From the NCBI GenBank assembly GCA_934247125.1, contig CAKQIZ010000036.1:1-18637 (forward strand): a DNA stretch of 18,637 nucleotides, written 5' to 3'. The notes under the pieces were generated by a model that was given only the letters and a program-made list of their open reading frames with translations, did no database searches and was not told the origin of the DNA. Positions 1 to 18,491 of this stretch are shown in pieces; the stretch's first letter is position 1, and each line of letters opens with the position of its first letter. The stretch comes from an uncultured Clostridia bacterium (GTDB lineage Bacteria; Bacillota; Clostridia; Peptostreptococcales; Anaerovoracaceae). The translations under genes were made by a program, and so were the position numbers.

Positions 1-318
1 GTCGTGCTTTCGAAGAACGTGATGCCGCTGCAAAACGGCAGTTACCGTGTAAAGTGCAGTGCCAACATCAACAAGGTCTTCGACTATCTGAAGATCGATG
101 ACGATTCTGATGCGGTAACTGTGAACGGCTGGGTAGTGGAAAAGCTGGACAAACTTCCGGAAAAGAATGATTCGTTTGAGGAAATCGCAGGCGGCAAGAA
201 GCTGAAGGTGAGGGTCACCAAGGCGGACGGGCGCAAGGCGATAGAGATAAATCTCAAGGTCGAAGAAGCCGGAGATGACGCCGATAACGGCGCTGCAGGG
301 AAAAAGGCGAGAGGATGA
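1..318 (+). CDS. CorC/HlyC-type transporter-associated domain, C-terminal fragment
   Basis: The reading frame is open at the left window edge and ends at TGA 316-318, so this is the last ~105 residues of a longer protein and the true start is outside. The visible part (GSYRVKCSANINKVFDYLKI, then VNGWVVEKLDKLPEKND, then KLKVRVTKADGRKAIEINLK) has the pattern of the CorC/HlyC transporter-associated domain: a 'G-y-v-dG...i.d.n..l' start, a 'GG-v...lG.iP..g' middle and a beta strand ending in 'r-I..v.v'. This domain closes the CNNM/CorC/TlyC family of membrane proteins with DUF21 and paired CBS domains, which are implicated in Mg2+ or cation efflux. The last ~20 residues are acidic and then basic (AGDDADNGAAGKKARG), probably a disordered tail. 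Membrane and CBS domains cannot be seen here. The family call is from recognition only. Confidence 0.75.
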   Translation, partial: VVLSKNVMPLQNGSYRVKCSANINKVFDYLKIDDDSDAVTVNGWVVEKLDKLPEKNDSFEEIAGGKKLKVRVTKADGRKAIEINLKVEEAGDDADNGAAGKKARG

Positions 319-322
319 CCTG

Positions 323-510
323 ATGTCGACTTACAGTCGGCACACTGATGAAACACCACAAGGGTGTGCCCTTAATGTCGGTCTTTGACCGACAAATTAA
401 TGAAACCCTAAAGGATAACCTATATGTCGGTCTTTGACCGACAAATTAATGAAACACCACAAGGGTATAACCTGATGTCGATCTGCGATCGACACACTAA
501 TGAAAGGAGA
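323..510 (+). repeat. Four tandem ~50-nt hairpin repeats in the secA leader
   Basis: Four units start at 323, 375, 424 and 475. Each begins ATGTCG and forms a 7-bp stem with a 3-nt loop: GTCGACT-TAC-AGTCGGC (325-341), GTCGGTC-TTT-GACCGAC (377-393 and 426-442) and GTCGATC-TGC-GATCGAC (477-493). The stems differ in sequence but stay paired; three stem positions change on both sides between units 1 and 2. After each stem comes a conserved tail, roughly AMAHTRATGAAA, and in units 1 and 3 also CACCACAAGGGT. In unit 4 the tail turns into the secA ribosome binding site (AAAGGAG). Stem starts are spaced 52, 49 and 51 nt. No T-run follows any stem, so these do not look like ordinary terminators. The function is unknown to me. 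A cis-acting RNA or protein-binding array controlling secA is the simplest guess. Confidence 0.85.
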
Positions 511-7846: not shown

Positions 7847-8152
7847 TGTCGCAGCGATTTCAGCCGTAATCAGGTGTTTTATATGTTGCTGTGGCTGAAA
7901 AATGTAAATTTCAGTCTGTTCGAGATCGGCAGTGGCTTTTTCGCAGCGTGATCCATAGCGGCAACTGGATGTGGATTTCCATATTTCAGCCATAACTCCT
8001 TCTAAATTTTATCATATGGCTGAAATGAGAGCATACGTGAGCTGGCAGCTCATCAGAAGATCATGCAGACGACGTTTCAAAGGAAGAGGATTTCCATTTT
8101 TCCGCCATAGACCTGCAGATATGAGCGATTTATGGCTGAAATCGTTGCGACA
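7847..8152. repeat. Cluster of alternating ATTTCAGCCATA inverted repeats
   Basis: The ends, 7847-7868 and 8131-8152, are inverted repeats matching at 20 of 22 positions, and both mismatches become G-U pairs in + strand RNA. Between them are more copies of the core in both orientations: around 7892 (minus), 7983-7994 (plus), 8015-8026 (minus) and a degenerate one at 8092-8111. The copies at 7983 and 8015 form a perfect 12-bp stem with a 20-nt loop. No transposase or clear target duplication is seen. A MITE-like element or a REP-type cluster are the options. Open frames here are unsupported by homology or ribosome binding sites. Confidence 0.65.
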
Positions 8153-8160
8153 GACACCGG

Positions 8161-8350
8161 GCGACTCCGATTGCCTGCGCCGCACGCCGATTGCCGATCG
8201 CCTGCGCCGCTCCGCTTGCCGCTCATCGCCCGCCGATCGCCTGCGCCGCCCGCCGCTTACCTGCTTCGCGCACCGATCACGGCCGTTCACCGCACGCCGA
8301 TTGCCTGCTACGCGCACCGATCGCCGCCGCTCTTTGCCCGCCGCTCCATA
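8161..8350. repeat. GC-rich degenerate tandem repeat tract
   Basis: The 17-mer CCGATYGCCTGCGCCGC occurs at 8167, 8194 and 8233, and in a degenerate form at 8297, within about 190 nt made mostly of CGCC, GATC and TGC pieces. The composition is far more GC-rich than the neighbouring genes and stops abruptly before the AT-rich fab promoter. Frames are open in several phases on both strands, typical of low-complexity DNA, and nothing recognisable is encoded. This completes the description of the gene-free stretch 7610-8529. Confidence 0.65.
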
Positions 8351-8386
8351 CAGCGTTTGCCATCCAGCCATGTGCGAATCCTTTCC

Positions 8387-8415
8387 TTGACGAAAATGCG
8401 CAGAAATAGTATCAT
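8387..8415 (+). promoter_or_regulatory. Predicted sigma-A promoter of the fab operon
   Basis: TTGACG (8387-8392), a 17-nt spacer and TATCAT (8410-8415). The start point would be near 8422, giving a ~108-nt leader before fabK. The same TTGACG -35 with a 17-nt spacer precedes the tRNA gene in this window. Confidence 0.7.
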
Positions 8416-8421
8416 ATAAAT

Positions 8422-8452
8422 AGTTTGACTATCAAAGTATTTGAATATAAAA
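8422..8452 (+). promoter_or_regulatory. FabT-type operator, with a second degenerate box
   Basis: TTTGA-CTA-TCAAA (8424-8436) is a perfect 5+5 palindrome. It closely resembles the TTTGAnTATCAAA site I remember for streptococcal FabT. A weaker box, TTTGA-ATA-TAAAA (8440-8452), follows 16 nt later. The first box sits on the predicted transcription start, a repressing position. The MarR/FabT-like domain encoded at the end of this operon is the likely ligand. Confidence 0.7.
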
Positions 8453-8529
8453 CTAAAAAAAGTTAACAATAGCAGTGCGGATCAAACCGCACATCAAAAC
8501 AGAGATCAGAACAGATGAGGAGGTACGAT

Positions 8530-9483
8530 ATGGTGAATGTTTGCGAGATCTTAGGAACAGAATACCCGATCATTCAGGGGGCTATGGCAAGGATCGCAGA
8601 ATGCAGTCTGGCAGCGGCAGTCAGCAACGGCGGCGGACTTGGGATAATCGCAGCCGGCGGTCAGAGCGCAGACTGGCTCAGGGACCAGATAAAGAAGACA
8701 AGAGAAATGACAGATAAGCCGTTTGGTGTCAATATCATGCTGCTTGCAGACAATGTTGACGAGCTGATGGACGTAGTGTGCGAGGAGAAAGTCGCCGTCG
8801 TGACTACAGGCGCGGGAAATCCGGGCAAATATATAGCAAAGCTCAAGGAAGCAGGCATCAGAGTCATTCCTGTAGTAGCCAACGTCACACTGGCGCAGAG
8901 AGTAGCGCGCGCAGGTGCAGACGCGGTAGTTGCAGAAGGAACGGAGGCAGGCGGTCACGTCGGTGAGACTACGACCATGGCGCTGATCCCGCAGATGGTC
9001 GATGCGCTGGATATCCCGGTCATCGCGGCAGGCGGCATTGCGGACGGAAGAGGTATCGCAGCGGCATACATGCTGGGAGCTAAAGGAGTGCAGGTGGGAA
9101 CGAGATTCCTCGTTGCAGACGAATGCATCATACATCAGGGATACAAAGACGCGATCCTGAAAGCGAAGGATTCATCGACAGTGGCTACGGGCAGGAGCAC
9201 CGGACACCCTGTAAGAATAATCAAGAACAAGCTCGCAAGAAAGATACTTTCACTCGAGAAGAAGAACGCTCCTGAAGAGGAGATCAATGAACTCTGCACA
9301 GGCACCCTCGCGGCAGCAGTGGTGAATGGAGATGCAGACAACGGGAATATCATGTCGGGACAGATCGCAGGCCTCGTGAAGAAAGAACAGCCTGCAGCAG
9401 AGATGATAGAAGAAATGTTTAAGGAGGCGGCAGAAGTTTATGAAGATAGGAATAGTATTTGCAGGGCAGGGCGCACAGTATAG
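8530..9483 (+). CDS. fabK: Enoyl-ACP reductase II, FMN-dependent (FabK)
   Basis: FabK reduces the enoyl-ACP double bond in the last step of each elongation cycle, using NAD(P)H and FMN. The product (317 aa from ATG 8530) has the family's TIM-barrel marks: YPIIQGAMARIA near the N-terminus, NGGGLGIIAAGG, VTTGAGNPG, the catalytic EAGGHVGE motif with H143, and the FMN phosphate site AAGGIADGRG...GVQVGTRFLVADE. I chose ATG 8530 because GAGGAGGT ends 5 nt before it. The upstream ATG at 8515 would lie across that ribosome binding site. First gene of the fab operon, directly under the FabT-like operator. The end overlaps fabD by 44 nt. General nitronate monooxygenase is the alternative, but the fab context and length favour FabK. 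Confidence 0.93.
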   Translation: MVNVCEILGTEYPIIQGAMARIAECSLAAAVSNGGGLGIIAAGGQSADWLRDQIKKTREMTDKPFGVNIMLLADNVDELMDVVCEEKVAVVTTGAGNPGKYIAKLKEAGIRVIPVVANVTLAQRVARAGADAVVAEGTEAGGHVGETTTMALIPQMVDALDIPVIAAGGIADGRGIAAAYMLGAKGVQVGTRFLVADECIIHQGYKDAILKAKDSSTVATGRSTGHPVRIIKNKLARKILSLEKKNAPEEEINELCTGTLAAAVVNGDADNGNIMSGQIAGLVKKEQPAAEMIEEMFKEAAEVYEDRNSICRAGRTV

Positions 9484-10420
9484 CGGCATGGGAAAGGATC
9501 TCTACGAGACTTATCCCGAAGCAAAGGCAGTATTCGACATGGCGGGAGACCAGGTGAAAGACTGGTGCTTCAACGGCGATGCGGATACCCTCAAGCAGAC
9601 GCACGTCACCCAGCCGACGATATACACGACAACGATGGCAGCTTATGAAGCGCTGCTCGCAGAGCTCAAAAAGCAGGGCATCGCAGACAAGCTGGAGATC
9701 ACCGCACTGGCAGGCTTCAGCCTCGGAGAATATTCAGCGCTGACTGCAGCAGGAGCGATAGACGAGATCAGCAAAGGCATCGACATAGTTTCCAAGAGAG
9801 GCGTGCTGATGCAGCAGGCAGGTCTTGACGAGGAAGGCAATGCAAAGGGCGGCATGGCGGCAGGTATCGGCGACAGACAGGCGATCCTGGAGGCAGTCGA
9901 AGAAGCAAGGGAGGACGGTATCCTCGAGGGCGTGAACTTCAATTCGCCGGTGCAGACAGTAGTCGCAGGAGACAAGGCGGCGCTGAAGCGCTTCAGAAGA
10001 GCCGCGAAGGCAAAAGGTGTAAAAGCGATCCCGCTCGGAGTGAGCACGGCTTTTCACAGTCCTATGATGATCCCGGCAGCAGAAAAGCTCAGAGATGTTC
10101 TGCTTGCAGCTGACCTGAAGGCTCCGGAGAAGACGGTTTATGCAAATGTCACTGCAGACGACATCATGAAGGACTTCGATGGAAAAGATGCAGGCGCTTA
10201 CCTTACGGACATGCTGGCAAAGCAGGCGATGAGCCCTGTTTACTGGGAAGAGATCATCAGGAGATTCGAAGCCGACGGCGTCAAGGCTATCGTGGAAGCA
10301 GGTCCGGGACATACGCTGACGGGGCTTACGAAAAAAACATGCCCTGAGATCGCGGCGCTCAATGTAGAAAACGTGGAGACACTGAACGAAACTGTGCAGA
10401 AGCTCGCAGAAATGCTCTAG
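9440..10420 (+). CDS. fabD: Malonyl-CoA:ACP transacylase
   Basis: FabD loads malonyl units onto acyl carrier protein for fatty-acid elongation. The 326-residue product has FAGQGAQYSGMG at the N-terminus (oxyanion-hole Gln), the nucleophile S94 in GFSLGEYSA, R120 for the malonyl carboxylate and H206 in STAFHSPMM. Near the end is VEAGPGHTLTGL, also typical. Length is normal (about 310). AAGGAGG (9421-9427) is 12 nt before ATG 9440, inside the fabK coding sequence, so translation of the two is probably coupled. A 123-nt gap follows before fabG, longer than other gaps in the operon. Confidence 0.97.
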   Translation: MKIGIVFAGQGAQYSGMGKDLYETYPEAKAVFDMAGDQVKDWCFNGDADTLKQTHVTQPTIYTTTMAAYEALLAELKKQGIADKLEITALAGFSLGEYSALTAAGAIDEISKGIDIVSKRGVLMQQAGLDEEGNAKGGMAAGIGDRQAILEAVEEAREDGILEGVNFNSPVQTVVAGDKAALKRFRRAAKAKGVKAIPLGVSTAFHSPMMIPAAEKLRDVLLAADLKAPEKTVYANVTADDIMKDFDGKDAGAYLTDMLAKQAMSPVYWEEIIRRFEADGVKAIVEAGPGHTLTGLTKKTCPEIAALNVENVETLNETVQKLAEML

Positions 10421-10506: not shown

Positions 10507-10543
10507 GAGCGGCACATATTTCAGCACATACAGGAGGACATAT

Positions 10544-11287
10544 ATGTTAAAAGGAAAAACAGCAGTAGTGACAGGCGGAGTCAGAGGGATCGGCAAGGCT
10601 ATCGCGAAGATTTTCTGTGAAAACGGCGCGAACGTCGTGCTCTGCTACAGGAGCAACGACGCCGAAGCGGAAAAGACTGCAGCCGAGCTCGGAACGCTTG
10701 GCACGCAGGTCCGCGTAGTGAAAGGCGACGTCGCAGATCCGGAAACCGCAAAGAAAGTCGCAGAACTTATAAAGACAGATTTCGACAAGAAGGTGGATAT
10801 ACTCGTCAACAACGCAGGCATCACCAACGATAAACTGATGATGAGAATGGACGCTGAAGACTTTACAAAAGTAATAAACGCAAACCTGAACGGTGCGTTT
10901 TACATGATGAAAGAACTCTCGGCACTCATGGTCAAGAAGAGAAGCGGCGTCATCATCAACATGGCGTCAGTCTCGGGACTCAAGGGCAACCCTGCGCAGG
11001 TGAACTACAGCGCATCGAAAGCCGGAATTGTCGGCATGACGCTTTCGGCAGCGAAAGAGCTCGGAAGACGCGGCATAAGAGTGAATGCGATCGCACCGGG
11101 ATTCATCGAAACCGATATGACTGCAGTGCTCACAGATGAACAGAAGGAAGCAGCTGCGAAGAACATCACGCTGGGAAGGCTCGGACAGCCCGAAGACATC
11201 GCGAACACTGCGCTTTTCCTCGCCTCGGATATGGGATCATATATCACGGGACAGGTCATCAGCGTAGACGGCGGGATAATAATGTAA
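10544..11287 (+). CDS. fabG: 3-oxoacyl-ACP reductase (FabG)
   Basis: FabG reduces the 3-ketoacyl-ACP made by FabF using NADPH. The 247-residue product is a classical short-chain dehydrogenase: TGGVRGIG (10-17) binds the cofactor, NNAG at 89-92, catalytic S142 in NMASVSG, Y155-SAS-K159, then the NAIAPGFIETDMT loop and the C-terminal ITGQVISVDGG typical of FabG. ATG 10544 is chosen because AGGAGG ends 6 nt before it and MLKGKTAVVTG fits the family start. An in-frame ATG further upstream (10460) would add 28 residues with no counterpart in FabG. fabF follows after 27 nt. Confidence 0.96.
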   Translation: MLKGKTAVVTGGVRGIGKAIAKIFCENGANVVLCYRSNDAEAEKTAAELGTLGTQVRVVKGDVADPETAKKVAELIKTDFDKKVDILVNNAGITNDKLMMRMDAEDFTKVINANLNGAFYMMKELSALMVKKRSGVIINMASVSGLKGNPAQVNYSASKAGIVGMTLSAAKELGRRGIRVNAIAPGFIETDMTAVLTDEQKEAAAKNITLGRLGQPEDIANTALFLASDMGSYITGQVISVDGGIIM

Positions 11288-11314: not shown

Positions 11315-12550
11315 ATGGAAAGAAGAGTTGTCGTAACAGGACTCGGAGTCGTTTCCCCTGTAGGAAACAATATAGATGAAATGTGGGCGTCGATAAAAGC
11401 CGGAAAGCACGGTATCGCGCCGATCACGAGATTTGACACAGAAGGCCACAAGGTGACGCTGGCAGCAGAAGTCAAGGATTTTGATTTCGGCGACAAGAGA
11501 GCTGCAAAGAGACTGGATATCGCGGATCAGTACGCACTCGTTGCAGCAAGGGAGGCTGTTGCGGACAGCGGCATCGTGAGCGGGGAAAACGTTGACCCTG
11601 ACAGATTCGGCATCTACGGCGGCACAGGTATCGGCGGTATCGCCACACTGGAAAGCGAAGTCACGAAGTGCATCAAGAAGGGCAACATGGCGAGAGCATC
11701 CGCCCTGCTGGTCCCTATGATGATGCCGAACGCTATCGCAGGGAATATTTCCATGGAATTCAATGCAAAAGGCCCGAGCTTCGGTATAGTTTCGGCTTGT
11801 GCATCAGGCACGCACACGATCGGTGAAGCATACAGGAACATCAAGCACGGATATAACGATGTCATCATGGCAGGCGGCGCAGAATCAGTGCTGGCACCTG
11901 TTTCATTCTCAGGCTTCGCGAACATGACAGCGATGAACACGACTACAGACCCTGACAGAGCATCGATCCCGTTTGACGTTGAGAGGAACGGATTCATACT
12001 CGGAGAAGGCGCAGGTTTCCTGATCCTCGAAGAGCTCGAGCATGCAAAGGCAAGAGGGGCGAAGATCTATGGAGAGATCGCAGGATACGGTGCAACGTCG
12101 GACGCATACCACATCACATCACCTGACCCTGAGGGAACAGGTGCGGCAAAGGCTATCCGGATGGCGCTCGATGATGCAGGCATCAAGCCTGAGGACGTTG
12201 ACTACATCAACGCTCATGGAACAGGTACACCTTACAACGACGCATTCGAGACGATCGCTATCAAGAAAGTGTTCGGAGACGACACGAAAGTGCCTGTAAG
12301 CTCGACTAAGAGCATGACGGGACATCTGCTCGGAGCTGCAGGAGGACTTGAGGCAGTTATCTGTGCAAAGGCTATCGTGGAGGGCTTCATTCCGCCTACG
12401 GTCGGTCTGCAGAACCAGGATCCTGAGCTCGACCTCGACTACGTTCCTAACACAGGCAGAGAAGCGGATCTCGAATACGTGCTTTCGAACTCGCTGGGAT
12501 TCGGCGGACACAACGGAACTCTGCTGATGAAGAAATACAGGGGCGAATAG
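11315..12550 (+). CDS. fabF: 3-oxoacyl-ACP synthase II (FabF)
   Basis: FabF condenses malonyl-ACP with acyl-ACP to lengthen the chain. The 411-residue product begins RRVVVTGLGVVSPVG and has the thiolase-fold triad C162 (SACASGTHT), H301 (INAHGTGTPYND) and H337 (STKSMTGHLLGAAGG), plus the closing SLGFGGHNGTLL. It is a KAS II rather than a KAS III by these His-His motifs. AAGGAGG is 7 nt before ATG 11315. No fabH is present in the window, so the initiating condensation must come from a gene elsewhere. Confidence 0.97.
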   Translation: MERRVVVTGLGVVSPVGNNIDEMWASIKAGKHGIAPITRFDTEGHKVTLAAEVKDFDFGDKRAAKRLDIADQYALVAAREAVADSGIVSGENVDPDRFGIYGGTGIGGIATLESEVTKCIKKGNMARASALLVPMMMPNAIAGNISMEFNAKGPSFGIVSACASGTHTIGEAYRNIKHGYNDVIMAGGAESVLAPVSFSGFANMTAMNTTTDPDRASIPFDVERNGFILGEGAGFLILEELEHAKARGAKIYGEIAGYGATSDAYHITSPDPEGTGAAKAIRMALDDAGIKPEDVDYINAHGTGTPYNDAFETIAIKKVFGDDTKVPVSSTKSMTGHLLGAAGGLEAVICAKAIVEGFIPPTVGLQNQDPELDLDYVPNTGREADLEYVLSNSLGFGGHNGTLLMKKYRGE

Positions 12551-12570: not shown

Positions 12571-12996
12571 ATGTTGATGAACAAAGAACAGATAAAGGAA
12601 GTGCTTCCTCACAGAGAGCCGTTCCTCCTGGTCGATCAGGTGGAAGAGATGGAAGTCGGCAAGTCCATCGTCGCTACTAAATTCGTGACGGAAGACGAGT
12701 ATTATTTTCAGGGACATTTTCCGGGCAGACCTATAATGCCCGGGGTCCTCATAGTCGAGTCGCTCGCGCAGGCAGGCGGTATAGCGGTGCTTTCCATGCC
12801 GGAAAACAAAGGCAAGCTGGCTGTTTTCGGAGCTATAAAGAATGCAAAGTTCAAGAAGCAGGTCGTTCCGGGGGACACGCTGACTCTCAAGGTCACTATG
12901 GACAGGCTCAGGACCAGTTCGGGGACGGGCCATGCAGAAGCTTATGTCGGAGACGTGCTCGCATGTAAATGCGAGATACTGTTTGCTTTCAGCTAG
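12571..12996 (+). CDS. fabZ: 3-hydroxyacyl-ACP dehydratase (FabZ)
   Basis: FabZ removes water from 3-hydroxyacyl-ACP to make the enoyl-ACP used by FabK. The 141-residue hot-dog protein shows LPHREPFLLVD, then QGHFPGRPIMPGVLIVESLAQAGG with the catalytic pair H49 and E63, and the usual FGAIKNAKFKKQVVPGD. AAGGAGG lies 8 nt before ATG 12571; an ATG two codons later is possible but spaced worse. It starts 20 nt after fabF, and its TAG is followed almost at once by the regulator-fusion gene. No isomerase function (FabM or FabA-like) can be inferred from sequence alone. Confidence 0.96.
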   Translation: MLMNKEQIKEVLPHREPFLLVDQVEEMEVGKSIVATKFVTEDEYYFQGHFPGRPIMPGVLIVESLAQAGGIAVLSMPENKGKLAVFGAIKNAKFKKQVVPGDTLTLKVTMDRLRTSSGTGHAEAYVGDVLACKCEILFAFS

Positions 12997-13005
12997 GTGG
13001 CGGGA

Positions 13006-14472
13006 TTGGACAGAGAGATAAGAAAGCTCAATGACATAATGGTCAGTCTGTTCAATACGGTGCTGAAGATGGAGGAGGAAGCCATCAGGAATACCTCGTG
13101 TGAGGATATTTCCATCACGGAGGTGCATACGCTCGAGGCGATCGGCACCGGCAGGCCCAGGACTATGACTCATGTCGCGAACATCCTGGGGATAAAGGTC
13201 AGTACGCTGACGACTGCCGTGAACAGACTGGTCAGAAAAGGATATGTCAGCAGGCTGCGCGATGAGAACGACCGAAGGATAGTCAAGATAAGCCTGACGG
13301 AAAAGGGCAGGGATATTGTCAGTGAGCACGAGGAGTTTCACGAGTCGATGATCCGTGAAGCGATAGCACAGATCCCTCAGGAGAATGTCAGTCAGTTCGT
13401 GTCGTCGCTGGAAAATATCAGCAGCTTCATGATCATGCGCGGCAGCATGCCGTATGAGAAGCAGTCGCGCTTTGAGCTGAAACCTCTGCAGCTGGCCGGA
13501 AACACGCTGCCGGTGCCGATCGTGCAGGCGGGCATGAGCATCGGCATCGCAGGCAAGCGCCTGGCGTCGGCAGTCGCGATACAGGGCGGACTGGGTCTGA
13601 TAGGCACTTCCAGGATCGGATACCGCAGTGAAAACTACGAAACTGATCCGCTGGAGGCTGATCTCAAGGCTCTTGAAGCGGAGGTCGCCGAGGCGTGCAG
13701 GATCGTGAAAAAGGCAGGCGGAAAAGGGCTGATAGGCGTGGCGGTCATGTGGAACGATCACGACGCAGGCAGATACGTCCAGGCGGCGGTACGAGGCGGC
13801 GCTCAGGTGATAGTCACCAGCGTCGGACTCCCCAAGGATCTTCCTAAATACTGTGAAGACAGGAAAGTCGCGCTTTTGCCTACCATATCTTCAAAGCGTG
13901 CGGCAGCCGCGATAACCAGGACGTGGACACAGAAGTACAACAGGACGCCGGACGGATTCATTTTCCAGGGGCCGTGTGCGGCAGGACTGCTCGGCTTCCG
14001 TGAATCAGAGCTCGAAAAGGCGTGCAACGACCGTTACAAGATAGTTGCCGAGATAAAGGCGGAGCTGGCGAAGATCGAAAACTGCCCGCTCATAGTGGGC
14101 GGCGGCATTTTCGACAGACAGGATGCGGAGAAGGTCTTCATGTACGGCGCGGACGGCATCCTGATGGGCACCAGATTCATTGCCACTGAGGAGTGCGATG
14201 CTGATGAGGCATACAAAAGGCTGTATTTGAACTGCACGGAAAATGATGTTACAATAGTCAGGAGTCCTATGAAGACATCTGCCAGAGTGATGAAAAACTC
14301 GTTCGCCAACATGCTGGCACGCACGGGCAAGGCGGATTACGACATAATCCGGGCCGTGCAGAAAGGCGTTGAGGGCGATCACGACAACGGACTGATCTTC
14401 TGCAGTGCGAATGCCGAAAAAATCAGGAAGACAGGTACCGTGGAAGATGTTTTCAGAGAATTCACCACCTGA
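13006..14472 (+). CDS. FabT-like MarR regulator fused to a degenerate nitronate monooxygenase/FabK-like domain
   Basis: One uninterrupted frame encodes two domains (488 aa from TTG 13006). Residues 1 to about 145 are a MarR winged helix: KLNDIMVSLFNTVLKMEE, ISITEVHTLEAIG, recognition helix VSTLTTAVNRLVRKGYV and the wing DENDRRIVKISLTEKG. They strongly resemble FabT, the acyl-ACP-responsive repressor of fab genes. Residues from about 157 are a nitronate monooxygenase/FabK-type barrel: PIVQAGMSIGIAGKRLASAV, GGLGLIGT, then the FMN phosphate elements IVGGGIF and GADGILMGTRFIATEECDAD. The usual GGHxG, whose His is the catalytic base, reads AAGLLGF, with Leu at 328. FMN binding may thus remain without the normal chemistry. 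I chose TTG 13006 because AGGTGG lies 5 nt upstream; GTG 12997, touching the fabZ stop, is the alternative (491 aa). Regulation of the fab operon by this protein is an inference. Confidence 0.88.
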   Translation: MDREIRKLNDIMVSLFNTVLKMEEEAIRNTSCEDISITEVHTLEAIGTGRPRTMTHVANILGIKVSTLTTAVNRLVRKGYVSRLRDENDRRIVKISLTEKGRDIVSEHEEFHESMIREAIAQIPQENVSQFVSSLENISSFMIMRGSMPYEKQSRFELKPLQLAGNTLPVPIVQAGMSIGIAGKRLASAVAIQGGLGLIGTSRIGYRSENYETDPLEADLKALEAEVAEACRIVKKAGGKGLIGVAVMWNDHDAGRYVQAAVRGGAQVIVTSVGLPKDLPKYCEDRKVALLPTISSKRAAAAITRTWTQKYNRTPDGFIFQGPCAAGLLGFRESELEKACNDRYKIVAEIKAELAKIENCPLIVGGGIFDRQDAEKVFMYGADGILMGTRFIATEECDADEAYKRLYLNCTENDVTIVRSPMKTSARVMKNSFANMLARTGKADYDIIRAVQKGVEGDHDNGLIFCSANAEKIRKTGTVEDVFREFTT

Positions 14473-14534: not shown

Positions 14535-17500
14535 ATGCTCAGCATCTATTACGGCAGCGAAGCGACAGACAGAGAAAAATTCATATTCGAACATGTAAAA
14601 GGCAGGACTCTGCTGCTTGTACCGGACCAGTTTTCGCTGCAGGCAGAAAGAGACGCCTTTTTTTATCTTGGAAAGAACAGCCTCATGGATCTGCGGGTCG
14701 TGGACTTCTCGACCATGGGGTATAAAGTACTGCGTCAGACGGGCGGCAGGATCCCGGATCTGATAGATAAGTACGGACGTCACATGCTGCTTGCCAGAGT
14801 GACTGCGGAGCTGGAAAGCGAGCTGGGGATCTACAAGGGGCTCAGCAGGAAAAACTCGTTCATCGATATGCTCAATACCGTGATCTCGGAAATGAAGCGC
14901 TACGATGTGAGCCCTGAGGATCTTGAAGATGCGCTGGGAAAGCTCGAGGAAAACAGCTATCTGAGCTGCAAGCTCGGCGACATACTCAAGGTCTATCGGG
15001 AGTATCAGGAGCAGATCGAAGGCAGATACCTTGACTCCGAGGACTATATCTCGTTTTACGGAGATCGGATCCTCGAAGCTCCGATGATACATGAATCGGA
15101 GATATGGATATACGGATTCGATACGTTCACGCCGAAAAACATGCAGGTGATCGAACGGCTGATCCTGTCTGCTCGGAATGTCAATGCAGTGATGACATAT
15201 GAAGCCGGAAAGGAGCAGTTTGAGCTCACCGGTCATGTGATGGGGCAGCTCAGGCAGCTTGCGGAGCGCAATGGCGTCGCTGTCAGCTTTGATGAGATAC
15301 ACGGGACGCAGAGAAAGACCGTATGGTCGAAAATCGCGCAGATGAAGCACGAGCGTCAGACGATCGCCGATGGGACTGAGACGAGTGCGCAGCCGGCAGA
15401 CGGAGCGGAGTGCAGCAGATTCCCGATCACGCTTGTCGCGGCTTCAAACATGTATGCGGAAGCGGAACGCGCGGCGGCATATATACTGGAGCTGGTGCGT
15501 GAAAAGGGATACAGATACGGTGATATCGTCGTTGTCTGCAACGATACGGAGACAAGGGGCGGCATCCTCAGACGCACGCTGATGCGATGGGGCATCCCTG
15601 TTTTCATGGATAAAAAGCGTAAAGTGCTGCACCACCGGGCCGTCAGCTTCCTGCTGGCACTGCTTGAGGTGATCGCGAAAGGATATCGTGATGAGGCTGT
15701 GATGAGCCTGGTGAAATCGGGCATGATACCTTTCAGCGAAGAAGAAAAGGAGCAGCTCGAGAACTACGTGAGGCAGTTTCGCATAAGAGGCAGCGCATGG
15801 AAAAATGATTTTGAAAAATGCGGAGACAGGTATGATGCGGAGCAGTTGAATATACTCAATGCTCTGCGAAGGAGTGTCGTTGACTGCATAGAAAATGCGA
15901 GACTCAGGATGGGTTCGCGAAATACAGCTGGGGAAAAGATCCGCGGGCTTTACACCTTCCTGGAGCAGGATATGGCTGTGATGGAGCGTCTGGAGCAGAT
16001 CATGGAAAGGCAGCAGGCGCTTGGTCTTGCTGAGAGTGCAGCTGAAACGTCGCAGAGCTGGAGCGTGATCTGTAATATATTCGATCAGATCGTGGATATC
16101 GCCGGAGAAGAGCGCATGTCCAATGAGGATCTGTTCTCACTGATGTCGGCGGGATTTGAAGAAGTCGAGATCGGTCTCGTTCCGGTGACGGGCGACAGTG
16201 TGCTGATCGGAACTCTGCAGAGGACGAGACTGAGCCAGCTCAAAGCGCTGCTCATCGTAGGAGCGAACGAAGGCGTGCTGCCTCTGAACAGGAACGATGA
16301 AGGTCTGCTCAGTGAGCGTGAAAAAGAGATACTGCAGTCGATGGAGCTTGAACTTTCAAAGAGAGACGAGATAGCCAGGCAGGAGGAGCAGCTGGCGATA
16401 TACAGGGCACTGTGGCTCCCGGAGGAAAGGCTGTACGTGAGCTGCTGCGGAGTCGATGAGAAAGGCGAGGAGTGCAGGCCGTCAGAGATTTTCGCGGTGC
16501 TGAAGGATTTTGTAGAGAAAAAGAGTGAGATTTCGCCGTTTGAGGATGGCGCGCGCCGATCTGCGGAAAATCATGAAAACTCGCCGTCAAAGGACATCGA
16601 ACACCGGCATAGCGCATCGGTGTTTGGCGATTCGTCACCTGAAGATGAGCGATCTGGCGAAAACTCATCGTCAAAGGATGTCGAACGTTGGCATAGCCCA
16701 TCGGTGTTTGGCGATCTGGGGGCGCGCGGCAGCTTTGCAGAACTGATAATTACGCCTAAAGGCACACTTTCACATATGGCTGCAGCTTTGCGCGACTATA
16801 AGGCCGACGGTACACTCGACCGCAGATGGCTGGAGGTGATGGACTGGTATGAAAAAAAAGACGAGGAAGATTTCGATCGCGTGAAGCACGGCCTGATGTT
16901 CGACAACAGGCTGGAGCTGCTGGGTGAAAAGTTTGCGGACAGCCTTTACAAAGGCGACTTGTCTGCTCTTGAAGTCAGTGCATCGCGCCTCGAGCAGTAC
17001 AGCAGATGTCCGTTCTCGCATTTCGTGATGTATGGGTTGAAAGCGCAGGAGCCAAGGATCTATGAAGTCGGCGCCAGGGAAATCGGCGATGTCTATCACA
17101 GATGTCTGATGAAGCTTTCGCAGCAGCTGACGCCCGGACGTGACAGCGGGATGGCGGTCAATGATCCGGATTCGCCGTGGATGAAGATAACGAGAGAAGA
17201 ATGCACGGAACAAATTCGCGATATAATGCGAAGCGACTCTCAAAGCTACAGAGAAGGGATACTTTCATCGGGCAGGGAGGAGTCGTACAGGGCAGAGCGC
17301 ATCGCCGAGATCTGCGGCAGTATTGCGTGGTCGATGGTGCAGCAGGTCAGAAAGGGCAGCATAAGATCTATGCGTTTCGAGTATCCGTTCGGGACAGGCA
17401 GAGCACTGCCTCCTGTCAGAGTGGACATCGGATCGCAGGAGGTGCTGATACAGGGCAAGATCGACAGGCTGGACATACTGGAGGGAGTTGCCGGCGATAT

Positions 17501-18415: not shown

Positions 18416-18491
18416 GCCACTGTAGCTCATCTGGCAGAGCAGCACATTCGTAACGTGCAGGTGGCCGGTTCGATCCCGGCCAGTGGCTCCA
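18416..18491 (+). tRNA. tRNA-Thr (anticodon CGT)
   Basis: The 76-nt cloverleaf includes an encoded CCA. The acceptor GCCACTG/CAGTGGC is perfect, the D stem is GCTC/GAGC, the T arm is GCCGG-TTCGATC-CCGGC, the discriminator is T and CCA is at 18489-18491. The anticodon loop TTCGTAA gives CGT, which reads ACG threonine codons. The anticodon stem GCACA/CGTGC has an A-C mismatch at the pair next to the loop (31-39). It is a single gene with its own promoter and terminator. Confidence 0.96.

What the first reader, a model, noticed from the sequence alone, without database searches (positions are those of the whole stretch)
13006..14472. FabT-like repressor fused to a nitronate monooxygenase/FabK-like flavin barrel
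A single frame joins a MarR domain that resembles FabT to a complete flavodoxygenase-type TIM barrel, at the end of a fab operon that itself starts with FabK. FabT is normally a stand-alone protein of about 145 residues that senses acyl-ACP. I know of no described FabT-enzyme fusion. The barrel could let the regulator sense flavin redox state, nitronates or an enoyl-ACP-like ligand, and so link membrane lipid synthesis to metabolism.
Basis: partly seen in the sequence, partly recalled or inferred. Interest (0 to 1): 0.88.

Follow-up and report, generated by a model that had tools for sequence, protein, structure and literature searches.

The report
Fat-synthesis repressor fused to dead enzyme
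In some anaerobic bacteria related to Clostridia, the switch protein that shuts down fatty-acid synthesis is permanently joined to a relative of an enzyme that makes unsaturated fats, and here the enzyme half has lost its catalytic parts yet stays conserved, which suggests that an enzyme was turned into a built-in sensor.

Summary
The fusion is real. One frame (TTG 13006 to stop 14472, 488 aa) joins a FabT-like MarR repressor (1-142) to a TIM barrel (157-488) at the end of fabK-fabD-fabG-fabF-fabZ. It is conserved: 120 non-redundant fusions, and the same operon in 17 of 20 loci. Of the fusions, 23 keep FabX's catalytic His and four Cys; the window and 96 others lost the His (Leu here), and 95 of those 97 also lost the Cys motif. 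In the window's group the barrel diverges no faster than in enzyme-bearing fusions, and its rewritten pocket is less variable than the rest of the barrel. A FabT-type operator (TTTGACTATCAAA, 8424-8436) lies before fabK and recurs, once per locus, in 16 of 21 loci. Best reading: a repressor of its own operon whose dead FabX barrel senses an acyl-ACP-type ligand. DNA binding, inactivity and ligand are inferred, not shown. The papers searched describe no such fusion.

The parts
8387..8415 (+). promoter-like pair TTGACG-17-TATCAT before fabK
   Evidence: consensus scan, 10 of 12 matches; the scan found 6 hits against 4.1 expected by chance, so weak on its own
8424..8436 (+). FabT-type operator TTTGACTATCAAA, with a further half-site TTTGA at 8440-8444; begins 8 bases after the -10-like hexamer, i.e. 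near the likely transcription start
   Evidence: exact core once in each of 16 of 21 fusion loci; 19 permuted half-sites average 0.53 sites; other spacings 0-2
8530..9483 (+). fabK, enoyl-ACP reductase (AGGAGG at 8518-8523 points to ATG 8530)
   Evidence: NCBIfam FabK 463 bits, above cut-off 453
9440..10420 (+). fabD, malonyl-CoA:ACP transacylase
   Evidence: Pfam Acyl_transf_1 E 1e-27
10541..11287 (+). fabG, ketoacyl-ACP reductase
   Evidence: Pfam adh_short_C2 E 2e-69
11315..12550 (+). fabF, ketoacyl-ACP synthase
   Evidence: Pfam ketoacyl-synt E 4e-52
12571..12996 (+). fabZ, hydroxyacyl-ACP dehydratase
   Evidence: Pfam FabA-like E 9e-31
13006..14472 (+). fusion gene: FabT-like MarR repressor joined to FabX-derived barrel (TTG start)
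13006..13431 (+). residues 1-142, FabT-like winged-helix repressor part
   Evidence: solved FabT 6jbx E 6e-28 over residues 5-142; NCBIfam FabT 129 bits, below its cut-off 200
13432..13473 (+). residues 143-156, linker, the least confident stretch of the model (block means 77, 61 and 79 over residues 131-160)
   Evidence: AlphaFold2 model, mean pLDDT 89.4
13474..14469 (+). residues 157-488, FabX-derived TIM barrel without catalytic His and without the four-Cys motif
13897..13935 (+). Arg298, Arg305, Lys310: basic residues at FabX ACP-docking positions 152, 159, 164, kept
   Evidence: K/R in 97, 92 and 95 of 97 His-less fusions
13966..13989 (+). Gln321 (FabX Glu175) to Leu328 (FabX catalytic His182)
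   Evidence: Glu 77/77 stand-alone FabX, 23/23 His-bearing fusions, 8/97 His-less fusions; His 77/77, 23/23, 0/97

Best explanation
A one-piece repressor-sensor of its own fatty-acid operon. (1) The FabT-like half, as a dimer, binds the TTTGACTATCAAA box near the start of transcription of fabK-fabD-fabG-fabF-fabZ-fusion and represses it (box and family shown; dimer, binding and repression inferred from FabT). (2) The barrel descends from FabX, which by the tree was most simply fused to FabT once, while still an enzyme. In the window's lineage it lost the catalytic parts: His182 to Leu, Glu175 to Gln, Gln240 to Leu, Asn99 to Ala, and the four-Cys segment gone (shown by sequence; loss of activity inferred from FabX mutants in print). 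(3) The pocket was rewritten rather than abandoned, and the basic residues at FabX's ACP-docking positions stay, so the barrel most likely binds an acyl-ACP-type ligand without turning it over and passes its state to the DNA-binding half through the short linker (inferred). Loss of the cluster segment, which closes the tunnel end in FabX, could admit longer chains (speculation). The likely sense is more repression when long acyl-ACP builds up, as for FabT.
For: Fusion conserved: 120 non-redundant members; the 62 sampled form one side of a branch (100/99) against 28 stand-alone FabX. Operon order K-D-G-F-Z-fusion in 17 of 20 loci. FabX nearest by sequence and fold. Coupled loss: His, Glu175, Gln240 and Asn99 are 77/77 in stand-alone FabX and 23/23 in His-bearing fusions, against 0, 8, 24 and 43 of 97 in the rest; Cys4 motif 77/77, 23/23, 2/97. 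Pocket rewritten: 7 of 13 clean switches fall in 26 pocket positions, 6 in 235 others (p 5e-5), yet the pocket is less variable than the rest (entropy 0.48 against 1.01), and barrel/FabT divergence in the window's group (0.87) matches the His-bearing fusions (0.89). Operator once in each of 16 of 21 loci; a longer version with at most one mismatch in 13 of 13 genomes searched, each time on the fusion's contig. FabX H182F and H182Q are inactive (PMC8626469 section 8). FabT binds its operator better with acyl-ACP (PMC13046290 part 1).
Against: No ligand or DNA binding was tested. Basic residues are kept (at least 95% K/R) at 3 of 3 ACP positions but also at 4 of 11 other conserved basic columns, so this is only suggestive; other ACP or phosphopantetheine contacts changed (Ile156 to Ala, Ile147 to Thr, position 277 to Thr, Glu175 to Gln). 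In the Tyr-bearing His-less group the barrel diverges faster than its FabT part (1.15). The backbone FMN contacts Gly366, Gly367 and Thr389 are kept, so flavin may still bind; FabX H182F keeps about 80% of its FMN. Stand-alone FabT already senses acyl-ACP without a barrel. In genome G176 an intact fusion stands with no fab genes beside it or found in the draft. The FabT part misses NCBI's FabT cut-off.
Confidence: 0.52

Rival explanations
1. The barrel still binds FMN and lets the repressor read flavin redox state or oxygen.
For: FabX residues 220, 221 and 243, which contact FMN, are kept in His-less fusions (Gly 97/97, Gly 96/97, Thr or Ser 96/97); that they hold the FMN phosphate is recalled of this fold. 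FabX without its His (H182F) still held about 80% FMN.
Against: Three of four FMN side-chain contacts are replaced in the window (Asn99 Ala, Glu175 Gln, Gln240 Leu), and the FMN-contacting glycines 22, 25 and 180 became Ala, Ser and Ala. In FabX, losing the cluster cysteines (except C304) also lost FMN.
Confidence: 0.13
2. The barrel is a fossil that serves only as a structural or dimer-stabilising tail; FabT does all the sensing.
For: Known FabT works alone; His, Cys and FMN contacts are lost; basic residues are kept at some other conserved sites too; faster barrel divergence in the Tyr group.
Against: In the window's group the pocket switched to specific new residues and stays less variable than the rest of the barrel. 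My fusion set was chosen for having both parts, so it cannot show that the barrel is never lost.
Confidence: 0.18
3. The His-less barrel is an enzyme with a new reaction.
For: Conserved rewritten pocket; a Tyr-bearing group (24 of 97) could still have an acid-base group.
Against: Leu, Met or Ile stands there in 70 of 97, and I saw no obvious replacement for the lost cluster cysteines.
Confidence: 0.1
4. Artefact: a sequencing or assembly error joined two genes.
For: None found.
Against: 120 non-redundant fusions from many contigs; 17 of 297 genomes in one open frame.
Confidence: 0.01

Closest known systems
FabT, MarR-family repressor of fatty-acid genes (Streptococcus, Enterococcus, Lactococcus)
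   Same: Homologous over nearly its whole length (6jbx E 6e-28); lies in the fab operon it should regulate; palindromic box before the operon.
FabX, FMN/[4Fe-4S] acyl-ACP dehydrogenase/isomerase of Helicobacter pylori
   Different: No catalytic His, no cluster-cysteine motif, three of four FMN side-chain contacts changed; fused to a repressor.
FabK / nitronate monooxygenase family
   Same: Same TIM-barrel superfamily (Pfam NMO E 5e-37).
Repressors that are also enzymes of their pathway, such as BirA and PutA (recalled, not tested)
   Same: A DNA-binding domain and a pathway enzyme in one chain; the His-bearing fusions would be of this kind.
   Different: In the window's lineage the enzyme part looks dead and would be only a sensor.

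Membership tests
FabT | MarR winged-helix family and sequence kinship to a solved FabT | tested here: met
   6jbx E 6e-28, residues 5-142; Pfam MarR
FabT | NCBIfam FabT equivalog cut-off (200 bits) | tested here: not met
   129.4 bits, the best family of that library for this protein; hence 'FabT-like'
FabT | Lies in the fab operon and has a palindromic TTTGA-N3-TCAAA box before it | tested here: met
   the exact FabT consensus is recalled, the passages read say only 'palindromic'
FabT | DNA binding strengthened by acyl-ACP | not testable with these tools
   needs protein
FabX | Sequence and fold nearest to FabX within the NMO superfamily | tested here: met
FabX | Catalytic His182 | tested here: not met
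   Leu328 in the window; His in 77/77 stand-alone FabX and 23 of 120 fusions
FabX | Four cysteines for [4Fe-4S] | tested here: not met
   absent in window; motif in 77/77 stand-alone, 23/23 His-bearing, 2/97 other fusions
FabX | FMN side-chain contacts Asn99, Glu175, Gln240, Thr243 | tested here: not met
   Ala, Gln, Leu, Thr in the window
FabX | Basic ACP-docking residues 152, 159, 164 | tested here: met
   Arg298, Arg305, Lys310; the further FabX contact Arg160 is Thr306 in the window
FabK | NCBIfam FabK cut-off (453 bits) | tested here: not met
   69 bits; the operon's own FabK scores 463
Nitronate monooxygenase (Pfam NMO) | Pfam domain cut-off | tested here: met
   128.6 bits against 28; names the superfamily, not the activity

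The most novel reading that the evidence does not exclude
An unsaturated-fatty-acid synthase was fused to the repressor of its own pathway, first as an enzyme-repressor in one chain (catalytic residues still complete in 23 of 120 fusions). In the window's lineage it was then converted into a non-catalytic acyl-ACP gauge, so that one polypeptide reads the pathway's intermediates through a dead enzyme pocket and sets transcription of the pathway.
Probability: 0.48. Interest if true: 0.87.

Novelty: new variant of a known kind. Interest (0 to 1): 0.76.

Why it matters
It is a natural series, in one protein family, from pathway enzyme, to enzyme fused to its pathway's repressor, to dead enzyme kept as part of the repressor. 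It makes testable how FabT-type control reads acyl-ACP. It also points to a candidate for a long-open question: in 2009 no dedicated unsaturated-fatty-acid enzyme was known in Clostridia, and C. acetobutylicum was said to use a 'novel and unknown enzyme' (abstract of PMC2700279). All 77 non-redundant stand-alone FabX homologues collected here keep the catalytic His and the Cys motif, and several lie directly beside fabT. Whether this was already solved in papers outside the library I cannot tell.

Tried and rejected
Sequencing-error or two-gene explanation: rejected. Nitronate monooxygenase or FabK as the barrel's identity: rejected on scores. Simple loss of a stop codon between neighbours: not supported as the origin, because the adjacent pairs found run fabX then fabT (L061, L062, L064, L066, L073), the reverse of the fusion order. 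Viral contigs: no match. A 410-base scan around the fabK start found the operator in 5 of 18 loci; the longer scan found an exact core in 11 of the other 13 at 1.04-1.18 kb before fabK, a one-mismatch core in L117 and none in L002. In L126 a frame that looks like FabH by eye (no search run) lies between. Further operator-like sites: the exact second one in G281 lies near frames that look by eye like a transposase and a transporter, so no wider regulon was shown.

Limits and rows dropped: P0098 (barrel part only) and P0099 (truncated) were dropped from the final fusion counts (still counted them). De-duplication at 95% identity over the barrel kept 198 of 219 sequences. The tree used 91 rows chosen by identity thresholds: 48 of 97 His-less and 14 of 23 His-bearing fusions, 28 of 77 stand-alone FabX, and H. 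pylori FabX; its bootstrap had not settled, and H. pylori FabX, L130 and L131 have long branches. The branch that puts P0109 with the other His-less fusions has only 95/41. The protein search scored 7997 candidates and listed 120 of 1571 hits. Genome completeness is unknown throughout.

Papers: PMC8626469 abstract, outline, sections 8-10 and passages; PMC11091888 passages; PMC9083066 passages; PMC13046290 part 1 of 3; PMC2700279 outline and abstract; PMC11581127, PMC10213047 and PMC11362086 passages; all others only in search listings.

Full report
WHAT IS THERE. The window carries a single 488-residue frame at 13006-14472, nine bases after the fabZ stop. Its first 142 residues are a MarR protein whose best solved relative is FabT (6jbx, E 6e-28, residues 5-142) and whose best NCBIfam family is FabT, though at 129 bits it stays below the curated cut-off of 200. 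Residues 157-488 form a TIM barrel (Pfam NMO, E 5e-37). The operon is fabK (8530), fabD, fabG, fabF, fabZ, fusion; addB follows at 14535. AlphaFold2 gives a confident model (mean pLDDT 89.4, pTM 0.82) with the weakest block at the linker.

NOT AN ARTEFACT. A protein search returned 1571 relatives; of the 120 listed, 118 match over 95% or more of the query at 44-94% identity, and two are fragments. With fusions from genomes added and near-copies removed, 120 sequences with both parts remain. In 297 genomes of the order of one relative, 17 hold the fusion in one open frame without stops and one more is split by contig ends; 213 of 297 have some match, and the other matches in the (cut) list cover mainly the barrel part. 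Twenty fusion loci were examined: in 17 the full series fabK-fabD-fabG-fabF-fabZ precedes the fusion (in one of them, L132, the fusion runs off the contig), in two the contig ends inside the operon (L004, L131), and in one (L119) there are no fab genes.

HOW IT AROSE. In a tree of the barrel (91 rows, seven key columns left out) the 62 sampled fusions form one side of a branch with support 100/99, and the His-less ones lie inside the His-bearing ones; two changes are needed, one for nearly all and one for L129. The simplest reading is that FabT and FabX were joined once, as an enzyme, and catalysis was lost later. Two His-less members (P0109, L129) still have the cysteines, as expected if the His went first. 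In other genomes fabX and fabT are separate neighbours (L061 Clostridium algifaecis, L062, L064, L066, L073), but in the order fabX-fabT, so the fusion is not simply a lost stop codon. In Ruminococcus gnavus a MarR gene and a 'nitronate monooxygenase' gene with successive locus tags fall in expression together with the fab genes (PMC11581127, one passage).

DEAD BUT KEPT. If the barrel were decaying it should diverge faster than its FabT partner. The ratio of barrel to FabT divergence is 0.87 in the Leu/Met/Ile group (the window's) and 0.89 in the His-bearing fusions; in the Tyr group it is 1.15, which does not fit as well. Comparing 100 catalytically complete sequences with 60 of the Leu/Met/Ile group, 13 positions switched cleanly from one conserved residue to another: seven among 26 pocket positions and six among 235 others (Fisher p 5e-5). 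The pocket is still less variable than the rest of the barrel (mean entropy 0.48 against 1.01). The basic residues at FabX's ACP-docking positions 152, 159 and 164 are kept in 97, 92 and 95 of 97 His-less fusions. As a control, of 11 other basic columns conserved in stand-alone FabX four are kept at 95% or more and seven are not, so this point is suggestive only. Other ACP and phosphopantetheine contacts changed.

THE OPERATOR. TTTGACTATCAAA at 8424-8436 lies just downstream of a promoter-like TTGACG-17-TATCAT (8387-8415, a weak scan). The exact core TTTGA-N3-TCAAA occurs once in each of 16 of 21 fusion loci (298,466 bases). Nineteen permuted half-sites give on average 0.53 sites (at most 2), and the same half-sites at other spacings give 0-2. 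Of the five loci without it, L117 has a one-mismatch site, L119 has no fab operon, L004 and L131 end inside the operon, and L002 has none although 1.7 kb before fabK is held. In 13 of 13 fusion genomes a longer version with at most one mismatch is found, each time on the contig of the fusion: 21 rows in all (palindromic hits listed twice in places) against 3 for the reversed control. That this is the FabT box rests on my recall of the consensus; the papers read speak of a palindromic site and of binding strengthened by acyl-ACP (PMC9083066 passages; PMC13046290 part 1).

HOW IT LIKELY WORKS. Shown: fusion, kinship, operon, recurring operator-like site, loss of catalytic and cofactor residues, a rewritten and still constrained pocket. 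Inferred: dimer, DNA binding and autorepression; loss of enzyme activity (FabX H182F and H182Q are inactive); sensing of an acyl-ACP-type ligand by the barrel. I put the last step at about one in two. A flavin sensor is not excluded: some backbone FMN contacts are kept, and FabX H182F keeps about 80% of its FMN.

GENOME CONTEXT. With a Clostridium FabX as query, 20 fusion genomes were searched: only G283 has a separate complete FabX, and the 10 genomes whose fusion is His-less have none (completeness unknown). So those organisms either do without FabX chemistry or use another route. Fatty-acid data are mixed. Aminipila butyrica, from a genus that bears a His-bearing fusion (P0104 is labelled Aminipila sp.), has 8.9% C16:1 w7c/w6c, which fits an active enzyme; Anaerovorax odorimutans DSM 5092 has only 0.7%, although a protein labelled A. 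odorimutans (P0100) is also His-bearing (another so labelled, P0096, is of the Tyr kind) (PMC11362086 passage). Growth medium may add fatty acids.

AGAINST. In G176 an intact His-less fusion sits without fab genes, and no FabF, FabZ or FabK was found in the draft, nor a fitting operator. This is either a recent loss or a sign of other targets.

NOVELTY. Only one paper in the library held FabT and FabX together (PMC11091888), and the passages read describe no fusion; searches for MarR with nitronate monooxygenase listed no paper on such a fusion either, judged by titles, abstracts and the passages read. The library lacks most subscription papers. I rate it a new variant of a known kind: repressors that carry a pathway enzyme are known (recalled), but I know of none whose enzyme went from FabX to a dead, conserved pocket.

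Noticed in passing
L119 (genome G176), 7983-9419: Intact His-less fusion without fab genes beside it and without FabF, FabZ or FabK found in the 1.8 Mb draft; frames that look by eye like an integrase and a nuclease lie where the fab operon would be.
   Followed up: partly
L005-L080, for example L019 (Clostridium beijerinckii), L061 (C. algifaecis): Stand-alone FabX homologues with catalytic His and the Cys motif (77 of 77 non-redundant), in some loci next to fabT; candidates for the missing clostridial unsaturated-fatty-acid enzyme.
   Followed up: partly
L061, 2768-2796: Two overlapping exact FabT-type boxes just before the fabX-fabT pair of Clostridium algifaecis.
   Followed up: no
genome G283, C1:3063220-3064302: The only fusion genome of 20 with a second, separate complete FabX. 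Its contig length, 4,941,017, equals the chromosome length printed for Anoxybacterium hadale in PMC11362086.
   Followed up: no
window 8167-8343: G+C-rich degenerate tandem repeats (periods 20 and 44) shortly before the fab promoter.
   Followed up: no
window 318-505: Tandem array of about 49 bases, 3-4 copies, just before secA.
   Followed up: no
window 18416-18491: tRNA-Thr (cgt) downstream of addB.
   Followed up: no
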